A program made the translations under genes and the position numbers. From Primulina eburnea (taxonomy: Eukaryota; Streptophyta; Magnoliopsida; Lamiales; Gesneriaceae), in contig NW_027331436.1 of the NCBI RefSeq assembly GCF_022965805.1, positions 186,001 through 250,000 on the forward strand: a stretch of DNA of 64,000 nt. The letters run 5' to 3'. The notes under the pieces are model-generated. The model was not told the DNA's origin. It saw nothing but the letters and a program-made list of their open reading frames with translations, and did not search any database. This document shows positions 1-59,100 of the stretch, piece by piece (the stretch's first letter is position 1; each line of letters begins with the position of its first letter).

Positions 1-1521
1 CTTCTCAGTCCTAGGCAACCCCAAAATAAAGTCCATAGAAATGTCAATCCAAGTTCTTTTTAAGAATAGCACGCAAAAGTGTTCCCAAAGTTCTATTGAC
101 AACTTCAGTTTGTCCATCCGTTTGAGGATGACAAGTAGTAGATTACAACAATATTGAGCAAAGTTTAGCCCTTAAAGTAATCCAAAAATAGAATCCCTCC
201 CCTTCTTAGTCCTAGGCAACCCCAAAATAAAGTGCATAGAAATGTCAATCCATGTTCTTTTTAAGAATAGCACGCAAAAGTGTTCCCAAAGTTCTATTTA
301 CAACTTCAGTTTGTCCATCCGTTTGAGAATGACAAGTAGCAGATTACAACAATATTGAGCAAAGGTTAGGCCATATAAGTTCTTTGACAACTTCAGTTTT
401 TCCATCCGTTTGAGGATGACAAGTAGTAGATTACAACAATATTGAGCAAAGTTTAGCCCATAAAGTAATTCAAAAATAGAATCCCTCCCCTTCTTAGTCC
501 TAGGCAACCCCAAAATAAAGTGCATAGAAATGTCAATCCAAGTTCTTTTTAAGAATAGCACGCACAAGTGTTCCCAAAGTTCTATTTACAACTTCAGTTT
601 GTCCATCCGTTTGAGGATGACAAGTAGTAGATTACAACAATATTGAGCAAAGTTTAGCCCATAAAGTAATCCAAAAATAGAATCCCTCACCTTCTTAGTC
701 CTAGGCAACCCCAAAATAAAGTGCATAGAAATGTCAGTCCAAGTTCTTTTAAGAATAGCACGCAAAAGTGTTCCCAAAGTTCTATTTACAACTTCAGTTT
801 GTCCATCCGTTTGAGGATGACAAGTAGTAGATTACAACAATATGGAGCAAAGTTTAGCCCATAAAGTAATGCAAAAATAGAATCCCTCCCCTTCTTAGTC
901 CTAAGGCAACCCCAAAATAAAGTCCATAGAAATGTCAATCCAAGTTCTTTTAAGAATAGCACGCACAAGTGTTCCCAAAGTTCTATTTACAACTTCAGTT
1001 TGTCCATCCGTTTGGGGATGACAAGTAGTAGATTACAACAATATTGAGCAAAGTTTAGCCCATATAAGTTCTATTGACAACTTCAGTTTGTCCATCCGTT
1101 TGAGGATGACAAATAGTAGATTACAACAATATTGAGCAAAGTTTAGCCCATAAAGTAACCAAAAATAGAATCCCTCCCCTTCTTAGTCCTAGGCAACCCC
1201 AGAATAAAGTGCATAGAAATGTCAATCCAAGTTCTTTATAAGAATAGCACGCAAAAGTGTTCTCAAAGTTCTATTTACAACTTCAGTTTGTCCATCCGTT
1301 TGAGGATGACAAGTAGTAGATTACAACAATATTGAGCAAAGTTTAGCCCATAAAGTAATCCAAAAATAGAATCCCTCACCTTCTCAGTCCTAGGCAACCC
1401 CAAAATAAAGTGCAGAGAAATGTCAATCCAAGTTCTTTTTAAGAATAGCACGCAAAAGTGTTCCCAAAGTTCTATTTACAACTTCAGTTTGTCCATCCGT
1501 TTGAGAATGACAAGTAGTAGA

Positions 1522-4500
1522 TTACAACAATATTGAGCAAAGTTTAGCCCATATAAGTTCTATTGACAACTTCAGTTTGTCCATCCGTTTGAGGATGACA
1601 AGTAGTAGATTACAACAATATTGAGCAATGTTTAGCCCATAAAGTAATCCAAAAATAGAATCCCTCCCCTTCTTAGTCCTAGGCAACCCCAAAATAAAGT
1701 GCATAGAAATGTCAATCCAAGTTCTTTTTAAGAATAGCACGCACAAGTGTTCCCAAAGTTCTATTTACAACTTCAGTTTGTCCATCCGTTTGAGGATGAC
1801 AAGTAGTAGATTACAACAATATTAAGCAAAGTTTAGCCCATAAAGTAATCCAAAAATAGAATCCCTCACCTTCTTAGTCCTAGGCAACCCCAAAATAAAG
1901 TGCATAGAAATGTCAGTCCAAGTTCTTTTAAGAATAGCACGCAAAAGTGTTCCCAAAGTTCTATTTACAACTTCAGTTTGTCCATCCGTTTGAGGATGAC
2001 AAGTAGTAGATTACAACAATATGGAGCAAAGTTTAGCCCATAAAGTAATGCAAAAATAGAATCCCTCCCCTTCTTAGTCCTAGGCAACCCCAAAATAAAG
2101 TCCATAGAAATGTCAATCCAAGTTCTTTTAAGAATAGCACGCACAAGTGTTCCCAAAGTTCTATTTACAACTTCAGTTTGTCCATCCGTTTGGGATGACA
2201 AGTAGTAGATTACAACAATATTGAGCAAAGTTTAGCCCATAAAGTAATGCAAAAATAGAATCCCTCCCCTTCTTAGTCCTAGGCAACCCCAAAATAAAGT
2301 CCATAGAAATGTCAATCCAAGTTCTTTTAAGAATAGCACGCACAAGTGTTCCCAAAGTTCTATTTACAACTTCAGTTTGTCCATCCGTGTGGGGATGACA
2401 AGTAGTAGATTACAACAATATTGAGCAAAGTTTAGCCCATATAAGTTCTATTGACAACTTCAGTTTGTCCATCCGTTTGAGGATGACAAATAGTAGATTA
2501 CAACAATATTGAGCAAAGTTTAGCCCATAAAGTAATCCAAAAATAGAATCCCTCCCCTTCTTAGTCCTAGGCAACCCCAAAATAAAGTCCATAGAAATGT
2601 CAATCCAAGTTCTTTTTAAGAATAGCACGCAAAAGTGTTCCCAAAGTTCTATTTACAACTTCAGTTTGTCCATCCGTTTGGGGATGACAAGTAGTAGATT
2701 ACAACAATATTGAGCAAAGTTTAGCCCATATAAGTTCTATTGACAACTTCAGTTTGTCCATCCGTTTGAGGATGACAAGCAGTAGATTACAACAATATTG
2801 AGCAATGTTTAGCCCATAAAGTAATCCAAAAATAGAATCCCTCCACTTCTTAGTCCTAGGCAACTCCAAAATAAAGTGCATAGAAATGTCAATCCAAGTT
2901 CTTTTTAAGAATAGCACGCACAAGTGTTCCCAAAGTTCTATTTACAACTTTCAGTTTGTCCATCCGTTTGAGGATGACAAGTAGTAGATTACAACAATAT
3001 TGAGCAAAGTTTAGCCCATAAAGTAATCCAAAAATAGAATCCCTCACCTTCTTAGTCCTAGGCAACCCCAAAATAAAGTGCATAGAAATGTCAGTCCAAG
3101 TTCTTTTAAGAATAGCACGCAAAAGTGTTCCCAAAGTTCTATTTACAACTTCAGTTTGTCCATCCGTTTGAGGATGACAAGTAGTAGATTACAACAATAT
3201 GGAGCAAAGTTTAGCCCATAAAGTAATGCAAAAATAGAATCCCTCCCCTTCTTAGTCCTAGGCAACCCCAAAATAAAGTCCATAGAAATGTCAATCCAAG
3301 TTCTTTTAAGAATAGCACGCACAAGTGTTCCCAAAGTTCTATTTACAACTTCAGTTTGTCCATCCGTTTGGGGATGACAAGTAGTAGATTACAACAATAT
3401 TGAGCAAAGTTTAGCCCATATAAGTTCTATTGACAACTTCAGTTTGTCCATCCGTTTGAGGATGACAAATAGTAGATTACAACAATATTGAGCAAAGTTT
3501 AGCCCATAAAGTAAACCAAAAATAGAATCCCTCCCCTTCTTAGTCCTAGGCAACCCCAGAATAAAGTGCATAGAAATGTCAATCCAAGTTCTTTTTAAGA
3601 ATAGCACGCAAAAGTGTTCTCAAAGTTCTATTTACAATTTCAGTTTGTCCATCCGTTTGAGGATGACAAGTAGTAGATTACAACAATATTGAGCAAAGTT
3701 TAGCCCATAAAGTAATCCAAAAATAGAATCCCTCACCTTCTCAGTCCTAGGCAACCCCAAAATAAATTGCATAGAAATGTCAATCCATGTTCTTTTTTAG
3801 AATAGCACGCAAAAGTGTTCCCAAAGTTCTATTTACAACTTCAGTTTGTCCATCCGTTTGAGAATGACAAGTAGCAGATTACAACAATATTGAGCAAAGG
3901 TTAGGCCATATAAGTTCTTTGACAACTTCAGTTTTTCCATCCGTTTGAGGATGACAAGTAGTAGATTACAACAATATTGAGCAAAGTTTAGCCCATAAAG
4001 TAATTCAAAAATAGAATCCCTCCCCTTCTTAGTCCTAGGCAACCCCAAAATAAAGTGCATAAAAATGTCAATCCAAGTTCTTTTTAAGAATAGCACGCAC
4101 AAGTGTTCCCAAAGTTCTATTTACAACTTCAGTTTGTCCATCCGTTTGAGGATGACAAGTAGTAGATTACAACAATATTGAGCAAAGTTTAGCCCATAAA
4201 GTAATCCAAAAATAGAATCCCTCACCTTCTTAGTCCTAGGCAACCCCAAAATAAAGTGCATAGAAATGTCAGTCCAAGTTCTTTTAAGAATAGCACGCAA
4301 AAGTGTTCCCAAAGTTCTATTTACAACTTCAGTTTGTCCATCCGTTTGAGGATGACAAGTAGTAGATTACAACAATATGGAGCAAAGTTTAGCCCATAAA
4401 GTAATGCAAAAATAGAATCCCTCCCCTTCTTAGTCCTAAGCAACCCCAAAATAAAGTCCATAGAAATGTCAATCCAAGTTCTTTTAAGAATAGCACGCAC

Positions 4501-4785
4501 AAGTGTTCCCAAAGTTCTATTTACAACTTCAGTTTGTCCATCCGTTTGGGGATGACAAGTAGTAGATTACAACAATATTGAGCAAAGTTTAGCCCATATA
4601 AGTTCTATTGACAACTTCAGTTTGTCCATCCGTTTGAGGATGACAAATAGTAGATTACAACAATATTGAGCAAAGTTTAGCCCATAAAGTAAACCAAAAA
4701 TAGAATCCCTCCCCTTCTTAGTCCTAGGCAACCCCAGAATAAAGTGCATAGAAATGTCAATCCAAGTTCTCTTTAAGAATAGCAC
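1522..4785 (-). repeat. Segmental duplication within the array, copy 1 (offset 7557 bp)
   Basis: The order and private variants of monomers here, such as ctccacttcttag with caactcc and an extra t in acaactttcag near 2945, are repeated at a constant offset of 7557 bp (9078-12342). That offset equals six 1178-bp units plus one 489-bp block. Confidence 0.75.
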
Positions 4786-5499
4786 GCAAAAGTGTTCTCA
4801 AAGTTCTATTTACAACTTCAGTTTGTCCATCCGTTTGAGGATGACAAGTAGTAGATTACAACAATATTGAGCAAAGTTTAGCCCATAAAGTAATCCAAAA
4901 ATAGAATCCCTCACCTTCTCAGTCCTAGGCAACCCCAAAATAAAGTGCATAGAAATGTCAATCCAAGTTCTTTTAAGAATAGCACGCACAAGTGTTCCCA
5001 AAGTTCTATTTACAACTTCAGTTTGTCCATCCGTTTGGGGATGACAAGTAGTAGATTACAACAATATTGAGCAAAGTTTAGCCCATATAAGTTCTATTGA
5101 CAACTTCAGTTTGTCCATCCGTTTGAGGAAGACAAATAGTAGATTACAACAATATTGAGCAAAGTTTAGCCCATAAAGTAAACCAAAAATAGAATCCCTC
5201 CCCTTCTTAGTCCTAGGCAACCCCAGAATAAAGTGCATAGAAATGTCAATCCAAGTTCTTTTTAAGAATAGCACGCAAAAGTGTTCTCAAAGTTCTATTT
5301 ACAATTTCAGTTTGTCCATCCGTTTGAGGATGACAAGTAGTAGATTACAACAATATTGAGCAAAGTTTAGCCCATAAAGTAATCCAAAAATAGAATCCCT
5401 CACCTTCTCAGTCCTAGGCAACCCCAAAATAAAGTGCATAGAAATGTCAATCCATGTTCTTTTTAAGAATAGCACGCAAAAGTGTTCCCAAAGTTCTAT
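3833..5499 (-). repeat. Expanded higher-order repeat unit, 1667 bp (7 full + 3 half monomers)
   Basis: Successive ttcagttt landmarks near 3836, 3923, 4122, 4322, 4522, 4612, 4811, 5011, 5101, 5302 and 5503 give seven ~200-bp and three ~89-bp steps. The unit repeats at 5500 with nearly the same sequence. Its length equals the 1178-bp unit plus a 489-bp block (two full monomers and one half). Confidence 0.8.
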
Positions 5500-7366
5500 T
5501 TACAACTTCAGTTTGTCCATCCGTTTGAGAATGACAAGTAGCAGATTACAACAATATTGAGCAAAGGTTAGGCCATATAAGTTCTTTGACAACTTCAGTT
5601 TTTCCATCCGTTTGAGGATGACAAGTAGTAGATTACAACAATATTGAGCAAAGTTTAGCCCATAAAGTAATTCAAAAATAGAATCCCTCCCCTTCTTAGT
5701 CCTAGGCAACCCCAAAATAAAGTGCATAAAAATGTCAATCCAAGTTCTTTTTAAGAATAGCACGCACAAGTGTTCCCAAAGTTCTATTTACAACTTCAGT
5801 TTGTCCATCCGTTTGAGGATGACAAGTAGTAGATTACAACAATATTGAGCAAAGTTTAGCCCATAAAGTAATCCAAAAATAGAATCCCTCACCTTCTTAG
5901 TCCTAGGCAACCCCAAAATAAAGTGCATAGAAATGTCAGTCCAAGTTCTTTTAAGAATAGCACGCAAAAGTGTTCCCAAAGTTCTATTTACAACTTCAGT
6001 TTGTCCATCCGTTTGAGGATGACAAGTAGTAGATTACAACAATATGGAGCAAAGTTTAGCCCATAAAGTAATGCAAAAATAGAATCCCTCCCCTTCTTAG
6101 TCCTAAGCAACCCCAAAATAAAGTCCATAGAAATGTCAATCCAAGTTCTTTTAAGAATAGCACGCACAAGTGTTCCCAAAGTTCTATTTACAACTTCAGT
6201 TTGTCCATCCGTTTGGGGATGACAAGTAGTAGATTACAACAATATTGAGCAAAGTTTAGCCCATATAAGTTCTATTGACAACTTCAGTTTGTCCATCCGT
6301 TTGAGGATGACAAATAGTAGATTACAACAATATTGAGCAAAGTTTAGCCCATAAAGTAAACCAAAAATAGAATCCCTCCCCTTCTTAGTCCTAGGCAACC
6401 CCAGAATAAAGTGCATAGAAATGTCAATCCAAGTTCTCTTTAAGAATAGCACGCAAAAGTGTTCTCAAAGTTCTATTTACAACTTCAGTTTGTCCATCCG
6501 TTTGAGGATGACAAGTAGTAGATTACAACAATATTGAGCAAAGTTTAGCCCATAAAGTAATCCAAAAATAGAATCCCTCACCTTCTCAGTCCTAGGCAAC
6601 CCCAAAATAAAGTGCATAGAAATGTCAATCCAAGTTCTTTTAAGAATAGCACGCACAAGTGTTCCCAAAGTTCTATTTACAACTTCAGTTTGTCCATCCG
6701 TTTGGGGATGACAAGTAGTAGATTACAACAATATTGAGCAAACTTTAGCCCATATAAGTTCTATTGACAACTTCAGTTTGTCCATCCGTTTGAGGATGAC
6801 AAATAGTAGATTACAACAATATTGAGCAAAGTTTAGCCCATAAAGTAAACCAAAAATAGAATCCCTCCCTTTCTTAGTCCTAGGCAACCCCAGAATAAAG
6901 TGCATAGAAATGTCAATCCAAGTTCTTTTTAAGAATACACGCAAAAGTGTTCTCAAAGTTCTATTTACAATTTCAGTTTGTCCATCCGTTTGAGGATGAC
7001 AAGTAGTAGATTACAACAATATTGAGCAAAGTTTAGCCCATAAAGTAATCCAAAAATAGAATCCCTCACCTTCTCAGTCCTAGGCAACCCCAAAATAAAG
7101 TCCATAGAAATGTCAATCCAAGTTCTTTTTAAGAATAGCACGCAAAAGTGTTCCCAAAGTTCTATTGACAACTTCAGTTTGTCCATCCGTTTGAGGATGA
7201 CAAGTAGTAGATTACAACAATATTGAGCAAAGTTTAGCCCATAAAGTAATCCAAAAATAGAATCCCTCCCCTTCTTAGTCCTAGGCAACCCCAAAATAAA
7301 GTGCATAGAAATGTCAATCCATGTTCTTTTTAAGAATAGCACGCAAAAGTGTTCCCAAAGTTCTAT

Positions 7367-8544
7367 TTACAACTTCAGTTTGTCCATCCGTTTGAGAATG
7401 ACAAGTAGCAGATTACAACAATATTGAGCAAAGGTTAGGCCATATAAGTTCTTTGACAACTTCAGTTTTTCCATCCGTTTGAGGATGACAAGTAGTAGAT
7501 TACAACAATATTGAGCAAAGTTTAGCCCATAAAGTAATTCAAAAATAGAATCCCTCCCCTTCTTAGTCCTAGGCAACCCCAAAATAAAGTGCATAGAAAT
7601 GTCAATCCAAGTTCTTTTTAAGAATAGCACGCACAAGTGTTCCCAAAGTTCTATTTACAACTTCAGTTTGTCCATCCGTTTGAGGATGACAAGTAGTAGA
7701 TTACAACAATATTGAGCAAAGTTTAGCCCATAAAGTAATCCAAAAATAGAATCCCTCACCTTCTTAGTCCTAGGCAACCCCAAAATAAAGTGCATAGAAA
7801 TGTCAGTCCAAGTTCTTTTAAGAATAGCACGCAAAAGTGTTCCCAAAGTTCTATTTACAACTTCAGTTTGTCCATCCGTTTGAGGATGACAAGTAATAGA
7901 TTACAACAATATGGAGCAAAGTTTAGCCCATAAAGTAATGCAAAAATAGAATCCCTCCCCTTCTTAGTCCTAAGCAACCCCAAAATAAAGTCCATAGAAA
8001 TGTCAATCCAAGTTCTTTTAAGAATAGCACGCACAAGTGTTCCCAAAGTTCTATTTACAACTTCAGTTTGTCCATCCGTTTGGGGATGACAAGTAGTAGA
8101 TTACAACAATATTGAGCAAAGTTTAGCCCATATAAGTTCTATTGACAACTTCAGTTTGTCCATCCGTTTGAGGATGACAAATAGTAGATTACAACAATAT
8201 TGAGCAAAGTTTAGCCCATAAAGTGAAACAAAAATAGAATCCCTCCCCTTCTTAGTCCTAGGCAACCCCAGAATAAAGTGCATAGAAATGTCAATCCAAG
8301 TTCTTTATAAGAATAGCACGCAAAAGTGTTCTCAAAGTTCTATTTACAACTTCAGTTTGTCCATCCGTTTGAGGATGACAAGTAGTAGATTACAACAATA
8401 TTGAGCAAAGTTTAGCCCATAAAGTAATCCAAAAATAGAATCCCTCACCTTCTCAGTCCTAGGCAACCCCAAAATAAAGTGCATAGAAATGTCAATCCAA
8501 GTTCTTTTTAAGAATAGCACGCAAAAGTGTTCCCAAAGTTCTAT
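7367..8544 (-). repeat. Higher-order repeat unit, 1178 bp (5 full + 2 half monomers)
   Basis: A marker monomer (gagaatgacaagtagcag followed by caaaggttaggccatataag) recurs at 7367 and 8545, giving a 1178-bp period. The same period separates 11390 and 12568; 12568 to 14923 is twice it (2355) and 298 to 3833 is three times it (3535). Five ~200-bp units plus two ~89-bp half units account for the length. Confidence 0.8.
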
Positions 8545-9077
8545 TTACAACTTCAGTTTGTCCATCCGTTTGAGAATGACAAGTAGCAGATTACAACAAT
8601 ATTGAGCAAAGGTTAGGCCATATAAGTTCTTTGACAACTTCAGTTTTTCCATCCGTTTGAGGATGACAAGTAGTAGATTACAACAATATTGAGCAAAGTT
8701 TAGCCCATAAAGTAATTCAAAAATAGAATCCCTCCCCTTCTTAGTCCTAGGCAACCCCAAAATAAAGTGCATAGAAATGTTAATCCAAGTTCTTATAAGA
8801 ATAGCACGCACAAGTGTTCCCAAAGTTCTATTTACAACTTCAGTTTGTCCATCCGTTTGAGGATGACAAGTAGTAGATTACAACAATATTGAGCAAAGTT
8901 TAGCCCATAAAGTAATCCAAAAATAGAATCCCTCACCTTCTTAGTCCTAGGCAACCCCAAAATAAAGTCCACAGAAATGTCAGTCCAAGTTATTTTAAGA
9001 ATAGCACGCAAAAGTGTTCCCAAAGTTCTATTTACAACTTCAGTTTGTCCATCCGTTTGGGGATGACAAGTAGTAGA

Positions 9078-12000
9078 TTACAACAATATTGAGCAAAGTT
9101 TAGCCCATATAAGTTCTATTGACAACTTCAGTTTGTCCATCCGTTTGAGGATGACAAGTAGTAGATTACAACAATATTGAGCAATGTTTAGCCCATAAAG
9201 TAATCCAAAAATAGAATCCCTCCCCTTCTTAGTCCTAGGCAACCCCAAAATAAAGTGCATAGAAATGTCAATCCAAGTTCTTTTTAAGAATAGCACGCAC
9301 AAGTGTTCCCAAAGTTCTATTTACAACTTCAGTTTGTCCATCCGTTTGAGGATGACAAGTAGTAGATTACAACAATATTAAGCAAAGTTTAGCCCATAAA
9401 GTAATCCAAAAATAGAATCCCTCACCTTCTTAGTCCTAGGCAACCCCAAAATAAAGTGCATAGAAATGTCAGTCCAAGTTCTTTTAAGAATAGCACGCAA
9501 AAGTGTTCCCAAAGTTCTATTTACAACTTCAGTTTGTCCATCCGTTTGAGGATGACAAGTAGTAGATTACAACAATATGGAGCAAAGTTTAGCCCATAAA
9601 GTAATGCAAAAATAGAATCCCTCCCCTTCTTAGTCCTAGGCAACCCCAAAATAAAGTCCATAGAAATGTCAATCCAAGTTCTTTTAAGAATAGCACGCAC
9701 AAGTGTTCCCAAAGTTCTATTTACAACTTCAGTTTGTCCATCCGTTTGGGGATGACAAGTAGTAGATTACAACAATATTGAGCAAAGTTTAGCCCATAAA
9801 GTAATGCAAAAATAGAATCCCTCCCCTTCTTAGTCCTAGGCAACCCCAAAATAAAGTCCATAGAAATGTCAATCCAAGTTCTTTTAAGAATAGCACGCAC
9901 AAGTGTTCCCAAAGTTCTATTTACAACTTCAGTTTGTCCATCCGTGTGGGGATGACAAGTAGTAGATTACAACAATATTGAGCAAAGTTTAGCCCATATA
10001 AGTTCTATTGACAACTTCAGTTTGTCCATCCGTTTGAGGATGACAAATAGTAGATTACAACAATATTGAGCAAAGTTTAGCCCATAAAGTAATCCAAAAA
10101 TAGAATCCCTCCCCTTCTTAGTCCTAGGCAACCCGAAAATAAAGTCCATAGAAATGTCAATCCAAGTTCTTTTTAAGAATAGCACGCAAAAGTGTTCCCA
10201 AAGTTCTATTTACAACTTCAGTTTGTCCATCCGTTTGGGGATGACAAGTAGTAGATTACAACAATATTGAGCAAAGTTTAGCCCATATAAGTTCTATTGA
10301 CAACTTCAGTTTGTCCATCCGTTTGAGGATGACAAGCAGTAGATTACAACAATATTGAGCAATGTTTAGCCCATAAAGTAATCCAAAAATAGAATCCCTC
10401 CACTTCTTAGTCCTAGGCAACTCCAAAATAAAGTGCATAGAAATGTCAATCCAAGTTCTTTTTAAGAATAGCACGCACAAGTGTTCCCAAAGTTCTATTT
10501 ACAACTTTCAGTTTGTCCATCCGTTTGAGGATGACAAGTAGTAGATTACAACAATATTGAGCAAAGTTTAGCCCATAAAGTAATCCAAAAATAGAATCCC
10601 TCACCTTCTTAGTCCTAGGCAACCCCAAAATAAAGTGCATAGAAATGTCAGTCCAAGTTCTTTTAAGAATAGCACGCAAAAGTGTTCCCAAAGTTCTATT
10701 TACAACTTCAGTTTGTCCATCCGTTTGAGGATGACAAGTAGTAGATTACAACAATATGGAGCAAAGTTTAGCCCATAAAGTAATGCAAAAATAGAATCCC
10801 TCCCCTTCTTAGTCCTAGGCAACCCCAAAATAAAGTCCATAGAAATGTCAATCCAAGTTCTTTTAAGAATAGCACGCACAAGTGTTCCCAAAGTTCTATT
10901 TACAACTTCAGTTTGTCCATCCGTTTGGGGATGACAAGTAGTAGATTACAACAATATTGAGCAAAGTTTAGCCCATATAAGTTCTATTGACAACTTCAGT
11001 TTGTCCATCCGTTTGAGGATGACAAATAGTAGATTACAACAATATTGAGCAAAGTTTAGCCCATAAAGTAAACCAAAAATAGAATCCCTCCCCTTCTTAG
11101 TCCTAGGCAACCCCAGAATAAAGTGCATAGAAATGTCAATCCAAGTTCTTTTTAAGAATAGCACGCAAAAGTGTTCTCAAAGTTCTATTTACAATTTCAG
11201 TTTGTCCATCCGTTTGAGGATGACAAGTAGTAGATTACAACAATATTGAGCAAAGTTTAGCCCATAAAGTAATCCAAAAATAGAATCCCTCACCTTCTCA
11301 GTCCTAGGCAACCCCAAAATAAAGTGCATAGAAATGTCAATCCATGTTCTTTTTAAGAATAGCACGCAAAAGTGTTCCCAAAGTTCTATTTACAACTTCA
11401 GTTTGTCCATCCGTTTGAGAATGACAAGTAGCAGATTACAACAATATTGAGCAAAGGTTAGGCCATATAAGTTCTTTGACAACTTCAGTTTTTTCATCCG
11501 TTTGAGGATGACAAGTAGTAGATTACAACAATATTGAGCAAAGTTTAGCCCATAAAGTAATTCAAAAATAGAATCCCTCCCCTTCTTAGTCCTAGGCAAC
11601 CCCAAAATAAAGTGCATAAAAATGTCAATCCAAGTTCTTTTTAAGAATAGCACGCACAAGTGTTCCCAAAGTTCTATTTACAACTTCAGTTTGTCCATCC
11701 GTTTGAGGATGACAAGTAGTAGATTACAACAATATTGAGCAAAGTTTAGCCCATAAAGTAATCCAAAAATAGAATCCCTCACCTTCTTAGTCCTAGGCAA
11801 CCCCAAAATAAAGTGCATAGAAATGTCAGTCCAAGTTCTTTTAAGAATAGCACGCAAAAGTGTTCCCAAAGTTCTATTTACAACTTCAGTTTGTCCATCC
11901 GTTTGAGGATGACAAGTAGTAGATTACAACAATATGGAGCAAAGTTTAGCCCATAAAGTAATGCAAAAATAGAATCCCTCCCCTTCTTAGTCCTAAGCAA

Positions 12001-12342
12001 CCCCAAAATAAAGTCCATAGAAATGTCAATCCAAGTTCTTTTAAGAATAGCACGCACAAGTGTTCCCAAAGTTCTATTTACAACTTCAGTTTGTCCATCC
12101 GTTTGGGGATGACAAGTAGTAGATTACAACAATATTGAGCAAAGTTTAGCCCATATAAGTTCTATTGACAACTTCAGTTTGTCCATCCGTTTGAGGATGA
12201 CAAATAGTAGATTACAACAATATTGAGCAAAGTTTAGCCCATAAAGTAAACCAAAAATAGAATCCCTCCCCTTCTTAGTCCTAGGCAACCCCAGAATAAA
12301 GTGCATAGAAATGTCAATCCAAGTTCTCTTTAAGAATAGCAC
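9078..12342 (-). repeat. Segmental duplication within the array, copy 2
   Basis: Partner of 1522-4785. It shares the private extra t near 10503 and the caactcc variant near 10427. Confidence 0.75.
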
Positions 12343-12567
12343 GCAAAAGTGTTCTCAAAGTTCTATTTACAACTTCAGTTTGTCCATCCGTTTGAGGATG
12401 ACAAGTAGTAGATTACAACAATATTGAGCAAAGTTTAGCCCATAAAGTAATCCAAAAATAGAATCCCTCACCTTCTCAGTCCTAGGCAACCCCAAAATAA
12501 AGTGCATAGAAATGTCAATCCAAGTTCTTTTTAAGAATAGCACGCAAAAGTGTTCCCAAAGTTCTAT
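11390..12567 (-). repeat. Higher-order repeat unit, 1178 bp (second example)
   Basis: Same order of monomer subtypes as 7367-8544, beginning at the same marker monomer and repeating at 12568. Confidence 0.78.
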
Positions 12568-33741: not shown

Positions 33742-33791
33742 CTTGCATGCAACTCCTACGTGTCTTCCTTAGAATTTGCCAAAATTCATTT

Positions 33792-40488: not shown

Positions 40489-40496
40489 ATATATAT
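40489..40496 (-). promoter_or_regulatory. TATA-like repeat of the 5' LTR
   Basis: atatatat, about 50 bp from the GC-rich hairpin array. The presumed promoter of the element's genomic RNA; 2 bp shorter than in the 3' LTR. Confidence 0.45.
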
Positions 40497-40546
40497 CTTG
40501 CATGCAACTCCTACGTGTCTTCCTTAGAATTTGCCAAAATTCATTT

Positions 40547-40757: not shown

Positions 40758-40862
40758 ACTCATGCTGTTTCAAAATTGTACTCTTCACCTTCTTTGACTA
40801 ATCTAATCTCGATTAACTACTAAAATCACAATTTCACCGATTTAACATTTCCGAGCTTTACA

Positions 40863-40867
40863 CTAGG
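40863..40867. repeat. Target-site duplication (ctagg), right
   Basis: Matches 30755-30759 and directly follows the LTR end gctttaca. Confidence 0.95.
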
Positions 40868-47500: not shown

Positions 47501-49065
47501 AAGTAGTAGATTACAACAATATTGAGCAAAGTTTAGCCCATAAAGTAATCCAAAAATAGAATCCCTCACCTTCTTAGTCCTAGGCAACCCCAAAATAAAG
47601 TGCATAGAAATGTCAGTCCAAGTTCTTTTAAGAATAGCACGCAAAAGTGTTCCCAAAGTTCTATTTACAACTTCAGTTTGTCCATCCGTTTGAGGATGAC
47701 AAGTAGTAGATTACAACAATATGGAGCAAAGTTTAGCCCATAAAGTAATGCAAAAATAGAATCCCTCCCCTTCTTAGTCCTAGGCAACCCCAAAATAAAG
47801 TCCATAGAAATGTCAATCCAAGTTCTTTTAAGAATAGAATAGCACGCAAAAGTGTTCTCAAAGTTCTATTTACAACTTCAGTTTGTCCATCCGTTTGAGG
47901 ATGACAAGTAGTAGATTACAACAATATTGAGCAAAGTTTAGCCATAAAGTAATCCAAAAATAGAATCCCTCCCCTTCTTAGTCCTAGGCAACCCCAAAAT
48001 AAAGTGCATAGAAATGTCAATCCAAGTTCTTTTAAGAATAGCACGCAAAGTGTTCCCAAAGTTCTATTTACAACTTCAGTTTGTCCATCCGTTTGAGGAT
48101 GACAAGTAGTAGATTACAACAATATTGAGCAAAGTTTAGCCCATAAAGTAATCCAAAATAGAATCCCTCCCCTTCTTAGTCCTAGGCAACCCCAAAATAA
48201 AGTCCATAGAAATGTCAATCCAAGTTCTTTTAAGAATAGCACGCAAAAGTGTTCCCAAAGTTCTATTACAACTTCAGTTTGTCCATCCGTTTGAGGATGA
48301 CAAGTAGTAGATTACAACAATATTGAGCAAAGTTTAGCCCATAAAGTAATCCAAAAATAGAATCCCTCCCCTTCTTAGTCCTTGGCAACCCAAAATAAAG
48401 TCCATAGAAATGTCAATCCAAGTTCTTTTAAGAATAGCACGCAAAAGTGTTCCTAAAGTTCTATTTACAACTTCAGTTTGTCCATCCGTTTGAGGATGAC
48501 AAGTAGTAGATTACAACAATATTGAGCAAAGTTTAGCCCATAAAGTAATCCAAAAATAGAATCCCTCCCCTTCTTAGTCCTAGGCAACCCAAGAATAAAG
48601 TGCATAGAAATGTCAATCCAAGTTCTTTTTAAGAATAGCACGCAAAAGTGTTCTCAAAGTTCTATTTACAACTTCAGTTTGTCCATCCGTTTGAGGATGA
48701 CAAGTAGTAGATTACAACAATATTGAGCAAAGTTTAGCCCATAAAGTAATCCAAAAATAGAATCCCTCCCCTTCTTAGTCCTAGGCAACCCCAAAATAAA
48801 GTGCATAGAAATGTCAATCCAAGTTCTTTTAAGAATAGCACGCACAAGTGTTCCCAAAGTTCTATTTACAACTTCAGTTTGTCCATCCGTTTGAGGATGA
48901 CAAGTAGTAGATTACAACAATATTGAGCAAAGTTTAGCCCATAAAGTAATCCAAAAATAGAATCCCTCCCCTTCTTAGTCCTAGGCAACCCCAAAATAAA
49001 GTGCATAGAAATGTCAATCCAAGTTCTTTTAAGAATAGCACGCACAAGTGTTCCCAAAGTTCTAT
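44594..49065 (-). repeat. Long higher-order repeat unit, 4472 bp
   Basis: Monomers at 44594, 44840, 45673, 46086, 46934 and 47378 recur in the same order, with the same private variants, at +4472 bp (49066, 49312, 50145, 50558, 51406, 51850). Part of the same block also appears at 28172-30045, before the inserted retrotransposon. Confidence 0.8.
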
Positions 49066-52000
49066 TTACAACTTCAGTTTGTCCATCCGTTTGAGGATGA
49101 CAAGTAGTAGATTACAACAATATTGAGCAAAGTTTAGCCCATAAAGTAATCCAAAAATAGAATCCCTCACCTTCTTAGTCCTAGGCAACCCCAAAATAAA
49201 GTCCACAGAAATGTCAGTCCAAGTTCTTTTAAGAATAGCACGCAAAAGTGTTCCCAAAGTTCTATTTACAACTTCAGTTTGTCCATCCGTTTGGGGATGA
49301 CAAGTAGTAGATTACAACAATATTGAGCAAAGTTTAGCCCATATAAGTTCTATTGACAACTTCAGTTTGTCCATCCGTTTGAGGATGACAAATAGTAGAT
49401 TACAACAATATTGAGCAAAGTTTAGCCCATAAAGTAATCCAAAAATAGAATCCCTCCCCTTCTTAGTCCTAGGCAACCCAAGAATAAAGTCCATAGAAAT
49501 GTCAATCCAAGTTCTTTTTAAGAATAGCACGCAAAAGTGTTCTCAAAGTTCTATTTACAACTTCAGTTTGTCCATCCGTTTGAGGATGACAAGTAGTAGA
49601 TTACAACAATATTGAGCAAAGTTTAGCCATAAAGTAATCCAAAAATAGAATCCCTCCCCTTCTTAGTCCTAGGCAACCCCAAAATAAAGTGCATAGAAAA
49701 TGTCAATCCAAGTTCTTTTTAAGAATAGCACGCAAAAGTGTTCCCAAAGTTCTATTTACAACTTCAGTTTGTCCATCCGTTTGAGGATGACAAGTTGTAG
49801 ATTACAACTTTATTGTGCAAAGTTTAGCCCATAAAGTAATCCAAAAATAGAATCCCTCCCCTTCTTAGTCCTAGGCAACCCCAAAATAAAGTCCATAGAA
49901 ATGTCAATCCAAGTTCTTTTTAAGAATAGCACGCAAAAGTGTTCCCAAAGTTCTATTTACAACTTCAGTTTGTCCATCTGTTTGAGGATGACAAGTAGTA
50001 GATTACAACAATATTGAGCAAAGTTTAGCCATAAAGTAATCCAAAAATAGAATCCCTCCCCTTCTTAGTCCTTGGCAACCCCAAAATAAAGTCCATAGAA
50101 ATGTCAATCCAAGTTCTTTTTAAGAATAGCACGCAAAAGTGTTCCTAAAGTTCTATTGACAACTTCAGTTTGTCCATCCGTTTGAGGATGACAAGTAGTA
50201 GATTACAACAATATTGAGCAAAGTTTAGCCCATAAAGTAATCCAAAAATAGAATCCCTCCCCTTCTTAGTCCTAGGCAACCCAAGAATAAAGTCCATAGA
50301 AATGTCAATCCAAGTTCTTTTTAAGAATAGCACGCAAAAGTGTTCTCAAAGTTCTATTTACAACTTCAGTTTGTCCATCCGTTTGAGGATGACAAGTAGT
50401 AGATTACAACAATATTGAGCAAAGTTTAGCCATAAAGTAATCTAAAAATAGAATCCCTCCCCTTCTTAGTCCTAGGCAACCCCAAAATAAAGTGCATAGA
50501 AATGTCAATCCAAGTTCTTTTTAAGAATAGCACGCAAAAGTGTTCCCAAAGTTCTATTTACAACTTCAGTTTGTCCATCTGTTTGAGGATGACAAGTAGT
50601 AGATTACAACAATATTGAGCAATGTTTAGCCCATAAAGTAATCCAAAAATAGAATCCCTCCCCTTCTTAGTCCTAGGCAACCCCAAAATAAAGTGCATAG
50701 AAATGTCAATCCAAGTTCTTTTTAAGAATAGCACGCACAAGTGTTCCCAAAGTTCTATTTACAACTTCAGTTTGTCCATCCGTTTGAGGATGGCAAGTAG
50801 TAGATTACAACAATATTGAGCAAAGTTTAGCCCATAAAGTAATCCAAAAATAGAATCCCTCCCCTTCTTAGTCCTAGGCAACCCCAAAATAAAGTGCATA
50901 GAAATGTCAATCCAAGTTCTTTTTAAGAATAGCACGCACAAGTGTTCCCAAAGTTCTATTTACAACTTCAGTTTGTCCATCCGTTTGAGGATGACAAGTA
51001 GTAGATTACAACAATATTGAACAAAGTTTAGCCCATAAAGTAATCTAAAAATAGAATCCCTCACCTTCTTAGTCCTAGGCAACCCCAAAATAAAGTACAT
51101 AGAAATGTCAGTCCAAGTTCTTTTAAGAATAGCACGCAAAAGTGTTCCCAAAGTTCTATTTACAACTTCAGTTTGTCCATCCGTTTGAGGATGACAAGTA
51201 GTAGATTACAACAATATGGAGCAAAGTTTAGCCCATAAAGTAATGCAAAAATAGAATCCCTCCCCTTCTTAGTCCTAGGCAACCCCAAAATAAAGTCCAT
51301 AGAAATGTCAATCCAAGTTCTTTTAAGAATAGCACGCACAAGTGTTCCCAAAGTTCTATTTACAACTTCAGTTTGTCCATCCGTTTGGAGATGACAAGTA
51401 GTAGATTACAACAATATTGAGCAAAGTTTAGCCCATATAAGTTCGATTGACAACTTCAGTTTGTCCATCCGTTTGAGGATGACAAATAGTAGATTACAAC
51501 AATATTGAGCAAAGTTTAGCCCATAAAGTAAACCAAAAATAGAATCCCTCCCCTTCTTAGTCCTACGCAACCCCAGAATAAAGTGCATAGAAATGTCAAT
51601 CCAAGTTCTTTTTAAGAATAGCACGCAAAAGTGTTCTCAAAGTTCTATTTACAACTTCAGTTTGTCCATCCGTTTGAGGATGACAAGTAGTAGATTACAA
51701 CAATATTGAGCAAAGTTTAGCCCATAAAGTAATCCAAAAATAGAATCCCTCACCTTCTCAGTCCTAGGCAACCCCAAAATAAAGTGCATAGAAATGTCAA
51801 TCCAAGTTCTTTTTAAGAATAGCACGCAAAAGTGTTCTCAAAGTTCTATTTACAACTTCAGTTTGTCCATCCGTTTGAGAATGATAAGTAGTAGATTACA
51901 ACAATATTGAGCAAAGGTTAGGCCATATAAGTTCTTTGACAACTTCAGTTTTTCCATCCGTTTGAGGATGACAAGTAGTAGATTACAACAATATTGAGCA

Positions 52001-53915
52001 AAGTTTAGCCCATAAAGTAATCCAAAAATAGAATCCCTCACCTTCTTAGTATTAGGCAACCCCAAAATAAAGTCCACAGAAATGTCAGTCCAAGTTCTTT
52101 TAAGAATAGCACGCAAAAGTGTTCTCAAAGTTCTATTTACAACTTCAGTTTGTCCATCCGTTTGGGGATGACAAGTAGTAGATTACAACAATATTGAGCA
52201 AAGTTTAGCCCATATAAGTTCTATTGACAACTTCAGTTTGTCCATCCGTTTGAGGATGACAAATAGTAGATTACAACAATATTGAGCAAAGTTTAGCCCA
52301 TAAAGTAATCCAAAAATAGAATCCCTCCCCTTCTTAGTCCTAGGCAACCCAAGAATAAAGTCCATAGAAATGTCAATCCAAGTTCTTTTTAAGAATAGCA
52401 CGCAAAAGTGTTCTCAAAGTTCTATTTACAACTTCAGTTTGTCCATCCGTTTGAGGATGACAAGTAGTAGATTACAACAATATTGAGCAAAGTTTAGCCA
52501 TAAAGTAATCCAAAAATAGAATCCCTCCCCTTCTTAGTCCTAGGCAACCCCAAAATAAAGTGCATAGAAAATGTCAATCCAAGTTCTTTTAAGAATAGCA
52601 CGCAAAAGTGTTCCTAAAGTTCTATTGACAACTTCAGTTTGTCCATCCGTTTGAGGATGACAAGTAGTAGATTACAACAATATTGAGCAAAGTTTAGCCC
52701 ATAAAGTAATCCAAAAATAGAATCCCTCCCCTTCTTAGTCCTAGGCAACCCCAAATAAAGTCCATAGAAATGTCAATCCAAGTTCTTTTTAAGAATAGCA
52801 CGCAAAAGTGTTCTCAAAGTTCTATTTACAACTTCAGTTTGTCCATCCGTTTGAGGATGACAAGTAGTAGATTACAACAATATTGAGGAAAGTTTAGCCA
52901 TAAAGTAATCCAAAAATAGAATCCCTCCCCTTCTTAGTCCTTGGCAACCCCAAAATAAAGTCCATAGAAATGTCAATCCAAGTTCTTTTTAAGAATAGCA
53001 CGCAAAAGTGTTCCTAAAGTTCTATTGACAACTTCAGTTTGTCCATCCGTTTGAGGATGACAAGTAGTAGATTACAACAATATTGAGCAAAGTTTAGCCC
53101 ATAAAGTAATCCAAAAATAGAATCCCTCCCCTTCTTAGTCCTAGGCAACCCAAGAATAAAGTCCATAGAAATGTCAATCCATGTTCTTTTTAAGAATAGC
53201 ACGCAAAAGTGTTCTCAAAGTTCTATTTACAACTTCAGTTTGTCCATCCGTTTGAGGATGACAAGTAGTAGATTACAACAATATTGAGGAAAGTTTAGCC
53301 ATAAAGTAATCCAAAAATAGAATCCCTCCCCTTCTTAGTCCTAGGCAACCCCAAAATAAAGTCCATAGAAATGTCAATCCAAGTTCTTTTTAAGAATAGC
53401 ACGCAAAAGTGTTCTCAAAGTTCTATTTACAACTTCAGTTTGTCCATCCGTTTGAGGATGACAAGTAGTAGATTACAACAATATTGAGCAAAGTTTAGCC
53501 CATAAAGTAATCCAAAAATTGAATCCCTCACCTTCTCAGTCCTAGGCAACCCCAAAATAAAGTGCATAGAAATGTCAATCCAAGTTCTTTTTAAGAATAG
53601 CACGCAAAAGTGTTCCCAAAGTTCTATTTACAACTTCAGTTTGTCCATCCGTTTGAGAATGACAAGTAGCAGATTACAACAATATTGAGCAAAGTTTAGC
53701 CCATATAAGTTCGATTGACAACTTCAGTTTGTCCATCCGTTTGATGATGACAAATAGTAGATTACAACAATATTGAGCAAAGTTTAGCCCATAAAGTAAT
53801 CCAAAAATAGAATCCCTCCCCTTCTTAGTCCTAGGCAACCCCAAAATAAAGTGCATAGAAATGTTAATCCAAGTTCTTTTAAGAATAGCACGCACAAGTG
53901 TTCCCAAAGTTCTAT
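49066..53915 (-). repeat. Long higher-order repeat unit, 4850 bp
   Basis: Monomers at 49066, 50145, 50558, 51406, 51850, 52183 and 53014 recur at +4850 bp (53916, 54995, 55408, 56256, 56700, 57033, 57864). Shared rare variants include gaggatggcaag (50788, 55638) and tagtattagg (52050, 56900). Confidence 0.8.
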
Positions 53916-56900
53916 TTACAACTTCAGTTTGTCCATCCGTTTGAGGATGACAAGTAGTAGATTACAACAATATTGAGCAAAGTTTAGCCCATAAAGTAAT
54001 CCAAAAATAGAATCCCTCACCTTCTTAGTCCTAGGCAACCCCAAAATAAAGTCCACAGAAATGTCAGTCCAAGTTCTTTTAAGAATAGCACGCAAAAGTG
54101 TTCCCAAAGTTCTATTTACAACTTCAGTTTGTCCATCCGTTTGGGGATGACAAGTAGTAGATTACAACAATATTGAGCAAAGTTTAGCCCATATAAGTTC
54201 TATTGACAACTTCAGTTTGTCCATCCGTTTGAGGATGACAAATAGTAGATTACAACAATATTGAGCAAAGTTTAGCCCATAAAGTAATCCAAAAATAGAA
54301 TCCCTCCCCTTCTTAGTCCTAGGCAACCCAAGAATAAAGTCCATAGAAATGTCAATCCAAGTTCTTTTTAAGAATAGCACGCAAAAGTGTTCTCAAAGTT
54401 CTATTTACAACTTCAGTTTGTCCATCCGTTTGAGGATGACAAGTAGTAGATTACAACAATATTGAGCAAAGTTTAGCCATAAAGTAATCCAAAAATAGAA
54501 TCCCTCCCCTTCTTAGTCCTAGGCAACCCCAAAATAAAGTGCATAGAAAATGTCAATCCAAGTTCTTTTTAAGAATAGCACGCAAAAGTGTTCCCAAAGT
54601 TCTATTTACAACTTCAGTTTGTCCATCCGTTTGAGGATGACAAGTTGTAGATTACAACTTTATTGTGCAAAGTTTAGCCCATAAAGTAATCCAAAAATAG
54701 AATCCCTCCCCTTCTTAGTCCTAGGCAACCCCAAAATAAAGTCCATAGAAATGTCAATCCAAGTTCTTTTTAAGAATAGCACGCAAAAGTGTTCCCAAAG
54801 TTCTATTTACAACTTCAGTTTGTCCATCTGTTTGAGGATGACAAGTAGTAGATTACAACAATATTGAGCAAAGTTTAGCCATAAAGTAATCCAAAAATAG
54901 AATCCCTCCCCTTCTTAGTCCTTGGCAACCCCAAAATAAAGTCCATAGAAATGTCAATCCAAGTTCTTTTTAAGAATAGCACGCAAAAGTGTTCCTAAAG
55001 TTCTATTGACAACTTCAGTTTGTCCATCCGTTTGAGGATGACAAGTAGTAGATTACAACAATATTGAGCAAAGTTTAGCCCATAAAGTAATCCAAAAATA
55101 GAATCCCTCCCCTTCTTAGTCCTAGGCAACCCAAGAATAAAGTCCATAGAAATGTCAATCCAAGTTCTTTTTAAGAATAGCACGCAAAAGTGTTCTCAAA
55201 GTTCTATTTACAACTTCAGTTTGTCCATCCGTTTGAGGATGACAAGTAGTAGATTACAACAATATTGAGCAAAGTTTAGCCATAAAGTAATCTAAAAATA
55301 GAATCCCTCCCCTTCTTAGTCCTAGGCAACCCCAAAATAAAGTGCATAGAAATGTCAATCCAAGTTCTTTTTAAGAATAGCACGCAAAAGTGTTCCCAAA
55401 GTTCTATTTACAACTTCAGTTTGTCCATCTGTTTGAGGATGACAAGTAGTAGATTACAACAATATTGAGCAATGTTTAGCCCATAAAGTAATCCAAAAAT
55501 AGAATCCCTCCCCTTCTTAGTCCTAGGCAACCCCAAAATAAAGTGCATAGAAATGTCAATCCAAGTTCTTTTTAAGAATAGCACGCACAAGTGTTCCCAA
55601 AGTTCTATTTACAACTTCAGTTTGTCCATCCGTTTGAGGATGGCAAGTAGTAGATTACAACAATATTGAGCAAAGTTTAGCCCATAAAGTAATCCAAAAA
55701 TAGAATCCCTCCCCTTCTTAGTCCTAGGCAACCCCAAAATAAAGTGCATAGAAATGTCAATCCAAGTTCTTTTTAAGAATAGCACGCACAAGTTTTCCCA
55801 AAGTTCTATTTACAACTTCAGTTTGTCCATCCGTTTGAGGATGACAAGTAGTAGATTACAACAATATTGAACAAAGTTTAGCCCATAAAGTAATCTAAAA
55901 ATAGAATCCCTCACCTTCTTAGTCCTAGGCAACCCCAAAATAAAGTACATAGAAATGTCAGTCCAAGTTCTTTTAAGAATAGCACGCAAAAGTGTTCCCA
56001 AAGTTCTATTTACAACTTCAGTTTGTCCATCCGTTTGAGGATGACAAGTAGTAGATTACAACAATATGGAGCAAAGTTTAGCCCATAAAGTAATGCAAAA
56101 ATAGAATCCCTCCCCTTCTTAGTCCTAGGCAACCCCAAAATAAAGTCCATAGAAATGTCAATCCAAGTTCTTTTAAGAATAGCACGCACAAGTGTTCCCA
56201 AAGTTCTATTTACAACTTCAGTTTGTCCATCCGTTTGGAGATGACAAGTAGTAGATTACAACAATATTGAGCAAAGTTTAGCCCATATAAGTTCGATTGA
56301 CAACTTCAGTTTGTCCATCCGTTTGAGGATGACAAATAGTAGATTACAACAATATTGAGCAAAGTTTAGCCCATAAAGTAAACCAAAAATAGAATCCCTC
56401 CCCTTCTTAGTCCTACGCAACCCCAGAATAAAGTGCATAGAAATGTCAATCCAAGTTCTTTTTAAGAATAGCACGCAAAAGTGTTCTCAAAGTTCTATTT
56501 ACAACTTCAGTTTGTCCATCCGTTTGAGGATGACAAGTAGTAGATTACAACAATATTGAGCAAAGTTTAGCCCATAAAGTAATCCAAAAATAGAATCCCT
56601 CACCTTCTCAGTCCTAGGCAACCCCAAAATAAAGTGCATAGAAATGTCAATCCAAGTTCTTTTTAAGAATAGCACGCAAAAGTGTTCTCAAAGTTCTATT
56701 TACAACTTCAGTTTGTCCATCCGTTTGAGAATGATAAGTAGTAGATTACAACAATATTGAGCAAAGGTTAGGCCATATAAGTTCTTTGACAACTTCAGTT
56801 TTTCCATCCGTTTGAGGATGACAAGTAGTAGATTACAACAATATTGAGCAAAGTTTAGCCCATAAAGTAATCCAAAAATAGAATCCCTCACCTTCTTAGT

Positions 56901-58052
56901 ATTAGGCAACCCCAAAATAAAGTCCACAGAAATGTCAGTCCAAGTTCTTTTAAGAATAGCACGCAAAAGTGTTCTCAAAGTTCTATTTACAACTTCAGTT
57001 TGTCCATCCGTTTGGGGATGACAAGTAGTAGATTACAACAATATTGAGCAAAGTTTAGCCCATATAAGTTCTATTGACAACTTCAGTTTGTCCATCCGTT
57101 TGAGGATGACAAATAGTAGATTACAACAATATTGAGCAAAGTTTAGCCCATAAAGTAATCCAAAAATAGAATCCCTCCCCTTCTTAGTCCTAGGCAACCC
57201 AAGAATAAAGTCCATAGAAATGTCAATCCAAGTTCTTTTTAAGAATAGCACGCAAAAGTGTTCTCAAAGTTCTATTTACAACTTCAGTTTGTCCATCCGT
57301 TTGAGGATGACAAGTAGTAGATTACAACAATATTGAGCAAAGTTTAGCCATAAAGTAATCCAAAAATAGAATCCCTCCCCTTCTTAGTCCTAGGCAACCC
57401 CAAAATAAAGTGCATAGAAAATGTCAATCCAAGTTCTTTTAAGAATAGCACGCAAAAGTGTTCCCAAAGTTCTATTTACAACTTCAGTTTGTCCATCCGT
57501 TTGAGGATGACAAGTTGTAGATTACAACTTTATTGTGCAAAGTTTAGCCCATAAAGTAATCCAAAAATAGAATCCCTCCACTTCTTAGTCCTAGGCAACC
57601 CCAAATAAAGTCCATAGAAATGTCAATCCAAGTTCTTTTTAAGAATAGCACGCAAAAGTGTTCCCAAAGTTCTATTTACAACTTCAGTTTGTCCATCTGT
57701 TTGAGGATGACAAGTAGTAGATTACAACAATATTGAGCAAAGTTTAGCCATAAAGTAATCCAAAAATAGAATCCCTCCCCTTCTTAGTCCTTGGCAACCC
57801 CAAAATAAAGTCCATAGAAATGTCAATCCAAGTTCTTTTTAAGAATAGCACGCAAAAGTGTTCCTAAAGTTCTATTGACAACTTCAGTTTGTCCATCCGT
57901 TTGAGGATGACAAGTAGTAGATTACAACAATATTGAGCAAAGTTTAGCCCATAAAGTAATCCAAAAATAGAATCCCTCCCCTTCTTAGTCCTAGGCAACC
58001 CAAGAATAAAGTCCATAGAAATGTCAATCCATGTTCTTTTTAAGAATAGCAC
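53916..58052 (-). repeat. Long higher-order repeat, third and incomplete copy
   Basis: Matches 49066-53202 at a constant 4850-bp offset. Beyond it, ordinary monomers continue to the sharp end of the array at 59100. Confidence 0.75.
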
Positions 58053-59100
58053 GCAAAAGTGTTCTCAAAGTTCTATTTACAACTTCAGTTTGTCCATCCG
58101 TTTGAGGATGACAAGTAGTAGATTACAACAATATTGAGGAAAGTTTAGCCATAAAGTAATCCAAAAATAGAATCCCTCCCCTTCTTAGTCCTAGGCAACC
58201 CCAAAATAAAGTGCATAGAAATGTCAATCCAAGTTCTTTTTAAGAATAGCACGCAAAAGTGTTCCCAAAGTTCTATTTACAACTTCAGTTTGTCCATCTG
58301 TTTGAGGATGACAAGTAGTAGATTACAACAATATTGAGCAATGTTTAGCCCATAAAGTAATCCAAAAATAGAATCCCTCCCCTTCTTAGTCCTAGGCAAC
58401 CCCAAAATAAAGTGCATAGAAATGTCAATCCAAGTTCTTTTTAAGAATAGCACGCACAAGTGTTCCCAAAGTTCTATTTACAACTTCAGTTTGTCCATCC
58501 GTTTGAGGATGACAAGTAGTAGATTACAACAATATTGAGCAAAGTTTAGCCCATAAAGTAATCCAAAAATAGAATCCCTCCCCTTCTTAGTCCTAGGCAA
58601 CCCCAAAATAAAGTGCATAGAAATGTCAATCCAAGTTCTTTTTAAGAATAGCACGCACAAGTGTTCCCAAAGTTCTATTTACAACTTCAGTTTGTCCATC
58701 CGTTTGAGGATGACAAGTAGTAGATTACAACAATATTGAACAAAGTTTAGCCCATAAAGTAATCTAAAAATAGAATCCCTCACCTTCTTAGTCCTAGGCA
58801 ACCCCAAAATAAAGTACATAGAAATGTCAGTCCAAGTTCTTTTAAGAATAGCACGCAAAAGTGTTCCCAAAGTTCTATTTACAACTTCAGTTTGTCCATC
58901 CGTTTGAGGATGACAAGTAGTAGATTACAACAATATGGAGCAAAGTTTAGCCCATAAAGTAATGCAAAAATAGAATCCCTCCCCTTCTTAGTCCTAGGCA
59001 ACCCCAAAATAAAGTCCATAGAAATGTCAATCCAAGTTCTTTTAAGAATAGCACGCACAAGTGTTCCCAAAGTTCTATTTACAACTTCAGTTTGTCCATC

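What the first reader, a model, noticed from the sequence alone, without database searches (positions are those of the whole stretch)
1..59100. A ~49-kb satellite whose monomer is built from retrotransposon integrase coding sequence
The ~200-bp monomer, read on the minus strand, encodes recognisable integrase segments and aligns with 60541-60680 and 60837-60911 of the CRM-like element in the same window. Most known retrotransposon-derived satellites that I recall come from LTRs or untranslated regions. One from the catalytic core of integrase, amplified to roughly 245 monomer equivalents with higher-order structure, is unusual.
Basis: partly seen in the sequence, partly recalled or inferred. 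Interest (0 to 1): 0.88.

Follow-up and report, generated by a model that had tools for sequence, protein, structure and literature searches.

The report
Satellite DNA made from integrase gene
A plant genome carries a 49,000-base tandem repeat whose 201-base unit is two joined scraps of a jumping gene's integrase coding sequence, an unusual origin for satellite DNA that shows how repeat DNA can be born from coding DNA.

Summary
Positions 1-30,759 and 40,863-59,100 form one satellite array (48,992 bp without the retrotransposon inserted at 30,760-40,862): 217 full units (consensus 201 bp) and 59 short units (86-91 bp), with higher-order repeats. The unit is two pieces of minus-strand integrase sequence, homologous to 60,541-60,680 and 60,837-60,904 of the Ty3/gypsy element at the window's right end, fused across a ~161-163 bp deletion. 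It keeps the first and third catalytic positions and lacks the second.

New here: the founder was not the neighbouring element. Differences from it sit in third codon positions (29 of 40; dN/dS about 0.03), while variation among array copies shows no third-position excess. A related but separate element, still under coding constraint, most likely seeded the array. Six further amino-acid changes are satellite-specific.

The host is probably in Gesneriaceae. Coding-derived satellites are known (gag, LINE ORF2, transposase); the one review table read lists none from integrase. New variant of a known kind. Copy number and chromosomal place are untested: the own-genome search did not complete.

The parts
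1..30759 (.). Left part of the satellite array (open at the window's left edge)
   Evidence: 134 full and 42 short units
40863..59100 (.). Right part of the same array; last unit cut after 37 bp at 59,100
   Evidence: 83 full and 17 short units
30760..40862 (-). Tekay/Del-like Ty3/gypsy retrotransposon (lineage name recalled) inserted in the array; target-site copies CTAGG at 30755-30759 and 40863-40867; one 1512-aa gag-pol ORF at 34207-38745; LTR copies differ by 1 of 1865 aligned bases plus one 2-bp indel
30855..32330 (.). Solo LTR of a related element nested in the left LTR, flanked by AATCT direct repeats
   Evidence: boundaries; about 76% identical to the host LTR over roughly 700 aligned bases
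59101..64000 (-). CRM-like Ty3/gypsy element, 3' end; its presumed LTR end (TGATAT on + strand) abuts the array in mid-unit, as an insertion into the array would; pol is split into two ORFs by an in-frame stop at 61875-61877
   Evidence: the other LTR lies outside the window, so insertion is inferred
60541..60680 (-). Homologue of monomer segment A: integrase core end with the Glu (codon 60594-60596)
60681..60843 (-). Integrase stretch absent from the unit (~161-163 bp, holds the second catalytic Asp near 60702); AAATA on both sides in this element
60837..60907 (-). Homologue of monomer segment B: first part of the integrase core with the first Asp (codon 60885-60887); AAG at its end is shared with 60541-60543 at the unit-to-unit joint
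49016..50943 (.). Example of higher-order repetition: 1,928 bp identical to 53866-55793 (period 4,850 bp)
   Evidence: array coordinates 38908 and 43758, plus 10108
2579..3766 (.). Example of higher-order repetition in the left part: 1,188 bp identical to 10136-11323 (period 7,557 bp)

Best explanation
A satellite born from a deleted integrase gene. A Ty3/gypsy (CRM-like) element of a lineage related to, but separate from, the one now beside the array lost ~161-163 bp inside integrase at a short AT-rich homology. The two remaining pieces (about 200 bp) were duplicated head to tail at a 3-bp homology (AAG). Unequal exchange and segmental duplication spread the unit into an array; a second loss of about 113 bp (from the unit lengths) made the short variant; blocks with periods of 1.2-9.3 kb were duplicated on top. 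The unit does not code: segments A and B are in different frames, the consensus has a stop codon, and the first catalytic position is no longer Asp in 126 of 217 units. Later a Tekay-like element, and probably the CRM-like element, inserted into the array. Shown: the two-piece make-up, the missing middle, the higher-order repeats, the Tekay insertion, the coding signature of the divergence. Inferred: deletion before duplication, unequal exchange as the driver, the separate parent element (not seen), the CRM-like element being an insertion, and a pericentromeric place.
For: Two-piece homology in one orientation, no trace of the deleted part. AAATA at both deletion ends (5 bp; 0.7% of random breakpoint pairs in this stretch have 5 bp or more) and AAG at the tandem joint (3 bp; 5.9% have 3 or more). 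Third codon positions carry 29 of 40 differences from the element (p = 3e-7; 30 of 41 when the joint is counted twice); dN/dS 0.032, bootstrap 0.012-0.095 from the 783 of 1000 resamples with a usable ratio; each of 217 units shows a third-position share of 0.58-0.75. Variation inside the array: 19 of 66, 17 of 68 and 20 of 67 sites at codon positions 1, 2, 3. Of 8 amino-acid differences, 6 satellite states are found in 0-2 of the 116-119 relatives covering them. First Asp: 91 of 217 D, 114 H, 12 others. Full units 94.7% alike on average; 71% of 150-mers recur exactly. Among the 120 listed homologues, Primulina integrases and the window's own score best against the unit.
Against: The parent element was not found. 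dS is near saturation (1.78 on 45 sites), so the distance between lineages is rough. The microhomologies are read from the neighbour, not the parent, and 3 bp is weak. The Glu codon is kept in 216 of 217 units, which I take as a well-homogenised site, not selection. Counted by copies rather than sites, array variation is uneven with most at first positions (562, 333, 364 cells). Part of the array could be shaped by the assembler. No copy number, no location.
Confidence: 0.72

Rival explanations
1. The satellite comes directly from the CRM-like element now next to it (or its immediate family) and decayed neutrally to 80% identity.
For: Adjacent; within 1 point of the best score among 122 integrases compared.
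Against: Neutral decay would spread differences evenly over codon positions; 29 of 40 are in third positions, whereas segregating sites inside the array are even. If only the element's branch had been constrained, an equally long neutral satellite branch should show far more than 11 changes in 138 first and second positions.
Confidence: 0.08
2. The satellite is old and close to the ancestral integrase sequence, because host DNA mutates more slowly than a retrotransposon copied by reverse transcriptase; nearly all differences then lie on the element's branch.
For: Would also give third-position bias, since the element's branch is constrained. Faster change of reverse-transcribed elements is recalled general knowledge.
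Against: Units 94.7% alike with long identical blocks look recent, though homogenisation can hide age. Six replacement changes on the satellite side show that its own branch is not negligible.
Confidence: 0.12
3. The tandem repeat first arose inside an element (as in Ogre 3' regions) and was spread by transposition before growing into this array.
For: A known route for plant satellites (PMC7004042, passages).
Against: The part of the CRM-like element in the window holds the two segments once each and nothing else matching the array; the Tekay-like element has one 30-bp match. Both tests see only these two copies.
Confidence: 0.05
4. The array is an assembly artefact of a short tandem repeat.
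For: Long identical blocks can be assembled falsely; the assembly could not be checked.
Against: Units differ (mean 96.6% to consensus, 19 clusters of which 6 are single units), two length classes in ordered patterns, a clean 5-bp target-site duplication around the inserted element.
Confidence: 0.03

Closest known systems
CRM1TR and CRM4TR of maize (PMC3648361, abstract and passages read)
   Same: Tandem repeats made wholly from centromeric Ty3/gypsy elements, with other retrotransposons inserted later that help date them
   Different: They come from LTR plus UTR (CRM1TR up to 97%, CRM4TR 95-98% similar to the parent; CRM4TR units about 1.4 kb); here the source is integrase coding sequence with an internal deletion, a 201-bp unit and about 80% identity to the element at hand
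Ogre-derived satellites of Lathyrus sativus (PMC7004042, passages) and PisTR-A of pea (PMC9659126 table)
   Same: Satellites from Ty3/gypsy elements
   Different: They start from short tandem arrays downstream of the coding region (Lathyrus) or from the 3' UTR (pea); no such array was seen in the element part held here
gag-derived repeats: Aegilops speltoides (cereba) and rye E3900 (PMC9659126 table and passages)
   Same: Coding sequence of an LTR retrotransposon as satellite source
   Different: gag, not integrase
LINE ORF2 satellites (PROsat, Pvc 20, HinfI) and the CACTA Tnp2-transposase satellite of Chenopodium (PMC9659126 table)
   Same: Coding sequence of a mobile element, including a transposase, turned into tandem repeats
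   Different: Different element classes; the table gives no fusion of two pieces

Membership tests
Satellite DNA | Long head-to-tail array of a non-coding unit | tested here: met
   276 classified units of 278 in about 49 kb; one ORF of 100 aa or more in the array, 125 aa
Satellite DNA | High copy number in the genome, chromosomal block | not tested
   Own-genome search tried five times, not answered
Retrotransposon-derived satellite | Unit homologous to part of a retrotransposon beyond chance | tested here: met
   with shuffle and second-element controls
CRM-derived tandem repeat (CRM1TR/CRM4TR kind) | Unit made of LTR and UTR | tested here: not met
   Unit lies in integrase coding sequence
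Ogre-type element-borne satellite | Short array of the unit present inside the element | tested here: inconclusive
   Only single copies of the two segments in the part of one element held here; other copies of the family not seen
CRM clade chromovirus (element at 59101-64000) | RT - RNase H - integrase order of Ty3/gypsy | tested here: met
   with ORF positions
CRM clade chromovirus (element at 59101-64000) | LTR ending T/CATCA (PMC3059260, passages) | tested here: inconclusive
   Minus strand reads ATATCA up to the array at 59101, which fits, but only one LTR end is in the window
CRM clade chromovirus (element at 59101-64000) | RT phylogeny within the CRM clade; CR motif at the integrase C-terminus | not tested
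   No reference set used; no chromodomain (PF00385) hit in either element, so Pfam does not discriminate
Centromeric satellite | CENH3 association | not testable with these tools
   Needs ChIP or FISH

The most novel reading that the evidence does not exclude
A young centromeric satellite made of a centromeric retrotransposon's own integrase gene, into which elements of that same family insert: the family's coding DNA has become its own landing platform.
Probability: 0.2. Interest if true: 0.7.

Novelty: new variant of a known kind. Interest (0 to 1): 0.47.

Why it matters
How satellites start is hard to document because founders are usually lost. Here the unit still shows its source gene, the deletion that made it and both joints, and the codon signature separates a coding past from a non-coding present. 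Birth, founder lineage and later decay become separately measurable. It also suggests that neither an LTR nor a ready tandem repeat inside the element is needed to start a satellite.

Tried and rejected
Direct descent from the neighbouring element: disfavoured by the codon-position test. Host gene or unrelated protein as a better match: a Pfam scan of the 125-aa array ORF gave five families at E 0.0006-0.19, all below their curated cut-offs and judged chance, and the typed 67-aa joined peptide gave none, so Pfam neither confirms nor denies integrase at this length. A protein search with the 125-aa ORF gave 14 hits; of the 5 I read all carry the DISMDF..GLPR stretch of integrase once, and none is a tandem copy of this unit; 5 of the 14 carry the integrase core family PF00665. 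Satellite in viral contigs: one 26-base exact pattern, 0 matches. Tekay-like element as the source: one 30-bp match, low peptide score. Papers on Gesneriaceae satellites: two listings (7 of 7 shown; 10 of 877 shown), nothing relevant in what was shown. The potato centromere paper (Gong et al. 2012) is not held. The unit as a selected protein: rejected (frame change, stop codon, loss of the first Asp in 126 of 217 units).

The confidences of the main and rival readings were lowered so that they add up to 1, because they exclude each other (main 0.80 to 0.72; rivals 0.10, 0.12, 0.08, 0.05 to 0.08, 0.12, 0.05, 0.03).
Full report
Observation. Tandem Repeats Finder shows a near-continuous array of units of about 200 and 88 bp over 1-30,759 and 40,863-59,100. 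An anchor-based split gives 278 units: 217 full (197-205 bp, consensus 201), 59 short (86-91 bp) and 2 cut by the insertions; mean identity to consensus is 0.966 for full and 0.969 for short units. Between the two parts lies a 10,103-bp retrotransposon with a CTAGG target-site copy on each side; without it and one copy the array is 48,992 bp. The finding's figures of about 49 kb and 245 units are right; its span includes this insert.

Integrase origin. BLASTN of 59,101-64,000 against the array gives 498 matches at E <= 1e-5, all in one orientation and all within about 60,540-60,690 or 60,830-60,920. The consensus aligns without gaps to 60,541-60,680 (A) and 60,837-60,904 (B), 77.7% over 139 bp and 85.3% over 68 bp with the joint counted in both, 80.1% over 201 bp with the joint counted once. 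B encodes IDISM(H/D)[17 protein letters not shown] encodes the core end with [26 protein letters not shown] in a different frame. The peptide score against this integrase is 328, at most 73 for 200 shuffles, and 157 for the Tekay-like element. The deleted middle and the rest of the element in the window have no match in the array at E <= 0.1. Which residues are catalytic is recalled knowledge: first Asp codon 60,885-60,887, second near 60,702 (lost), Glu 60,594-60,596. In the array the Glu is kept in 216 of 217 full units; the first Asp is D in 91, H in 114 and something else in 12.

How the unit was made. In the element at hand AAATA stands at both ends of the deleted stretch (161 bp by that alignment, 163 by the ungapped one) and AAG at both sides of the unit-to-unit joint; random breakpoint pairs in this stretch give 5 bp or more in 0.7% and 3 bp or more in 5.9% of trials. 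This fits joining at short homologies, the first well, the second weakly. The short unit lacks about 113 bp by length.

Who was the founder. Of 40 differences between consensus and element, 29 are in third codon positions (p = 3e-7; 30 of 41, where the joint counts twice). Nei-Gojobori counts give dN 0.058, dS 1.78, ratio 0.032 (0.012-0.095, from the 783 of 1000 resamples with a usable ratio). As a control, sites that vary within the array are even over codon positions (19 of 66, 17 of 68, 20 of 67); weighted by copies they are not even, but the excess is at first, not third, positions (562, 333, 364). Each of 217 units alone shows a third-position share of 0.58-0.75 (the units are not independent). 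So both lines seem to have evolved as coding sequence for most of the time since they split. Of the eight amino-acid differences, six satellite states (H, I, C, S, I, stop) occur in 0-2 of the 116-119 relatives covering the site, and two V/I differences are common variants (relatives are 119 of the 120 listed of 7,572 hits). This is what decay after the founder stopped coding would leave. A rival, that the satellite is old but mutates slowly compared with a reverse-transcribed element, is not excluded.

Higher order. Identical 150-mers recur most at 4,850, 9,322, 4,472, 7,557, 1,667, 5,890 and 1,178 bp, with identical blocks up to 1,928 bp; 71% of 150-mers recur. Clustering at 3% gives 19 unit types (6 of them single units) in ordered strings; the left part repeats patterns such as HCB.ED and the right part GAIAFAAACB.ED (dots are short units). 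Mean pairwise identity of full units is 0.947.

Later insertions. The Tekay-like element (lineage name recalled) has a 1,512-aa ORF with gag, protease, RT, RNase H and integrase domains (the integrase core family itself scores below its curated cut-off), and LTR copies with 1 substitution and one 2-bp indel over 1,865 aligned bases: a very recent insertion, so the array is older than that. Its left LTR holds a solo LTR of a related element with AATCT on both sides. The CRM-like element's presumed LTR end meets the array inside a unit at 59,100/59,101; its other end is outside the window, so insertion is inferred. Its pol is split by an in-frame stop.

Host. Against the unit's peptides the best of 122 sequences are a Primulina integrase, the window's own and a second Primulina one (names). 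By full-length score the Primulina hits rank only 47th and 87th of 120, behind plants of other families. The Tekay-like polyprotein has Henckelia pumila as its two best hits, and 15 of its 46 hits are Henckelia or Primulina; Asteraceae also appear there. Both genera are in Gesneriaceae. The host is probably in or near that family; the species is not known to me.

Known kinds. The review table in PMC9659126 (section read in full) lists LTR, UTR and gag origins for plant LTR-retrotransposon satellites, ORF2 for LINEs and a transposase for one CACTA satellite, and none from integrase. Against too much novelty: the legend of its Figure 2 names POL (reverse transcriptase) among possible source regions, and a row on human minisatellites says any region of an element may serve. 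CRM1TR and CRM4TR are LTR-UTR (PMC3648361, abstract and passages). Ogre satellites start downstream of the coding region (PMC7004042, passages). Jujube centromere repeats are traced to LTR segments (PMC12596083, abstract and passages). Passages of PMC12371157, PMC5278356, PMC6947457, PMC6444444, PMC8122249, PMC7644871 and PMC4107277 named no integrase-derived satellite. Listings (30 of 157 shown; none) showed no title or abstract start announcing one. The library lacks most subscription papers, so absence from print is not shown.

Verdict. A real satellite with a secure integrase origin, most likely a separate founder lineage, and an unusual two-piece make-up: a new variant of a known kind. 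A role, if any, is untested; most likely it is ordinary heterochromatic repeat DNA, possibly pericentromeric (inferred from the CRM-like neighbour only).

Noticed in passing
window 30855-32330: A solo LTR (about 76% like its host LTR over roughly 700 bp) sits inside the LTR of an element whose own LTRs differ by one substitution, so insertion and LTR-LTR recombination both happened within a short time.
   Followed up: partly
window 59560-59840: Several diverged copies of a motif like CACGGACCCCGTG...GTCCGTGTA stand in the 3' end of the CRM-like element, within or near its LTR (seen by eye).
   Followed up: no
window 31935-32164: Short tandem copies of TCGGACG(C/A)TCCGAAC-like units lie inside the nested solo LTR.
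   Followed up: no
monomer codon matching 60885-60887: The 217 full units are split between His (114) and Asp (91) at the first catalytic position, a possible marker for unit lineages.
   Followed up: partly
window 34958-34987: A 30-bp stretch of the Tekay-like element's own pol matches the array (best E 0.003), as expected of two distantly related integrases.
   Followed up: partly
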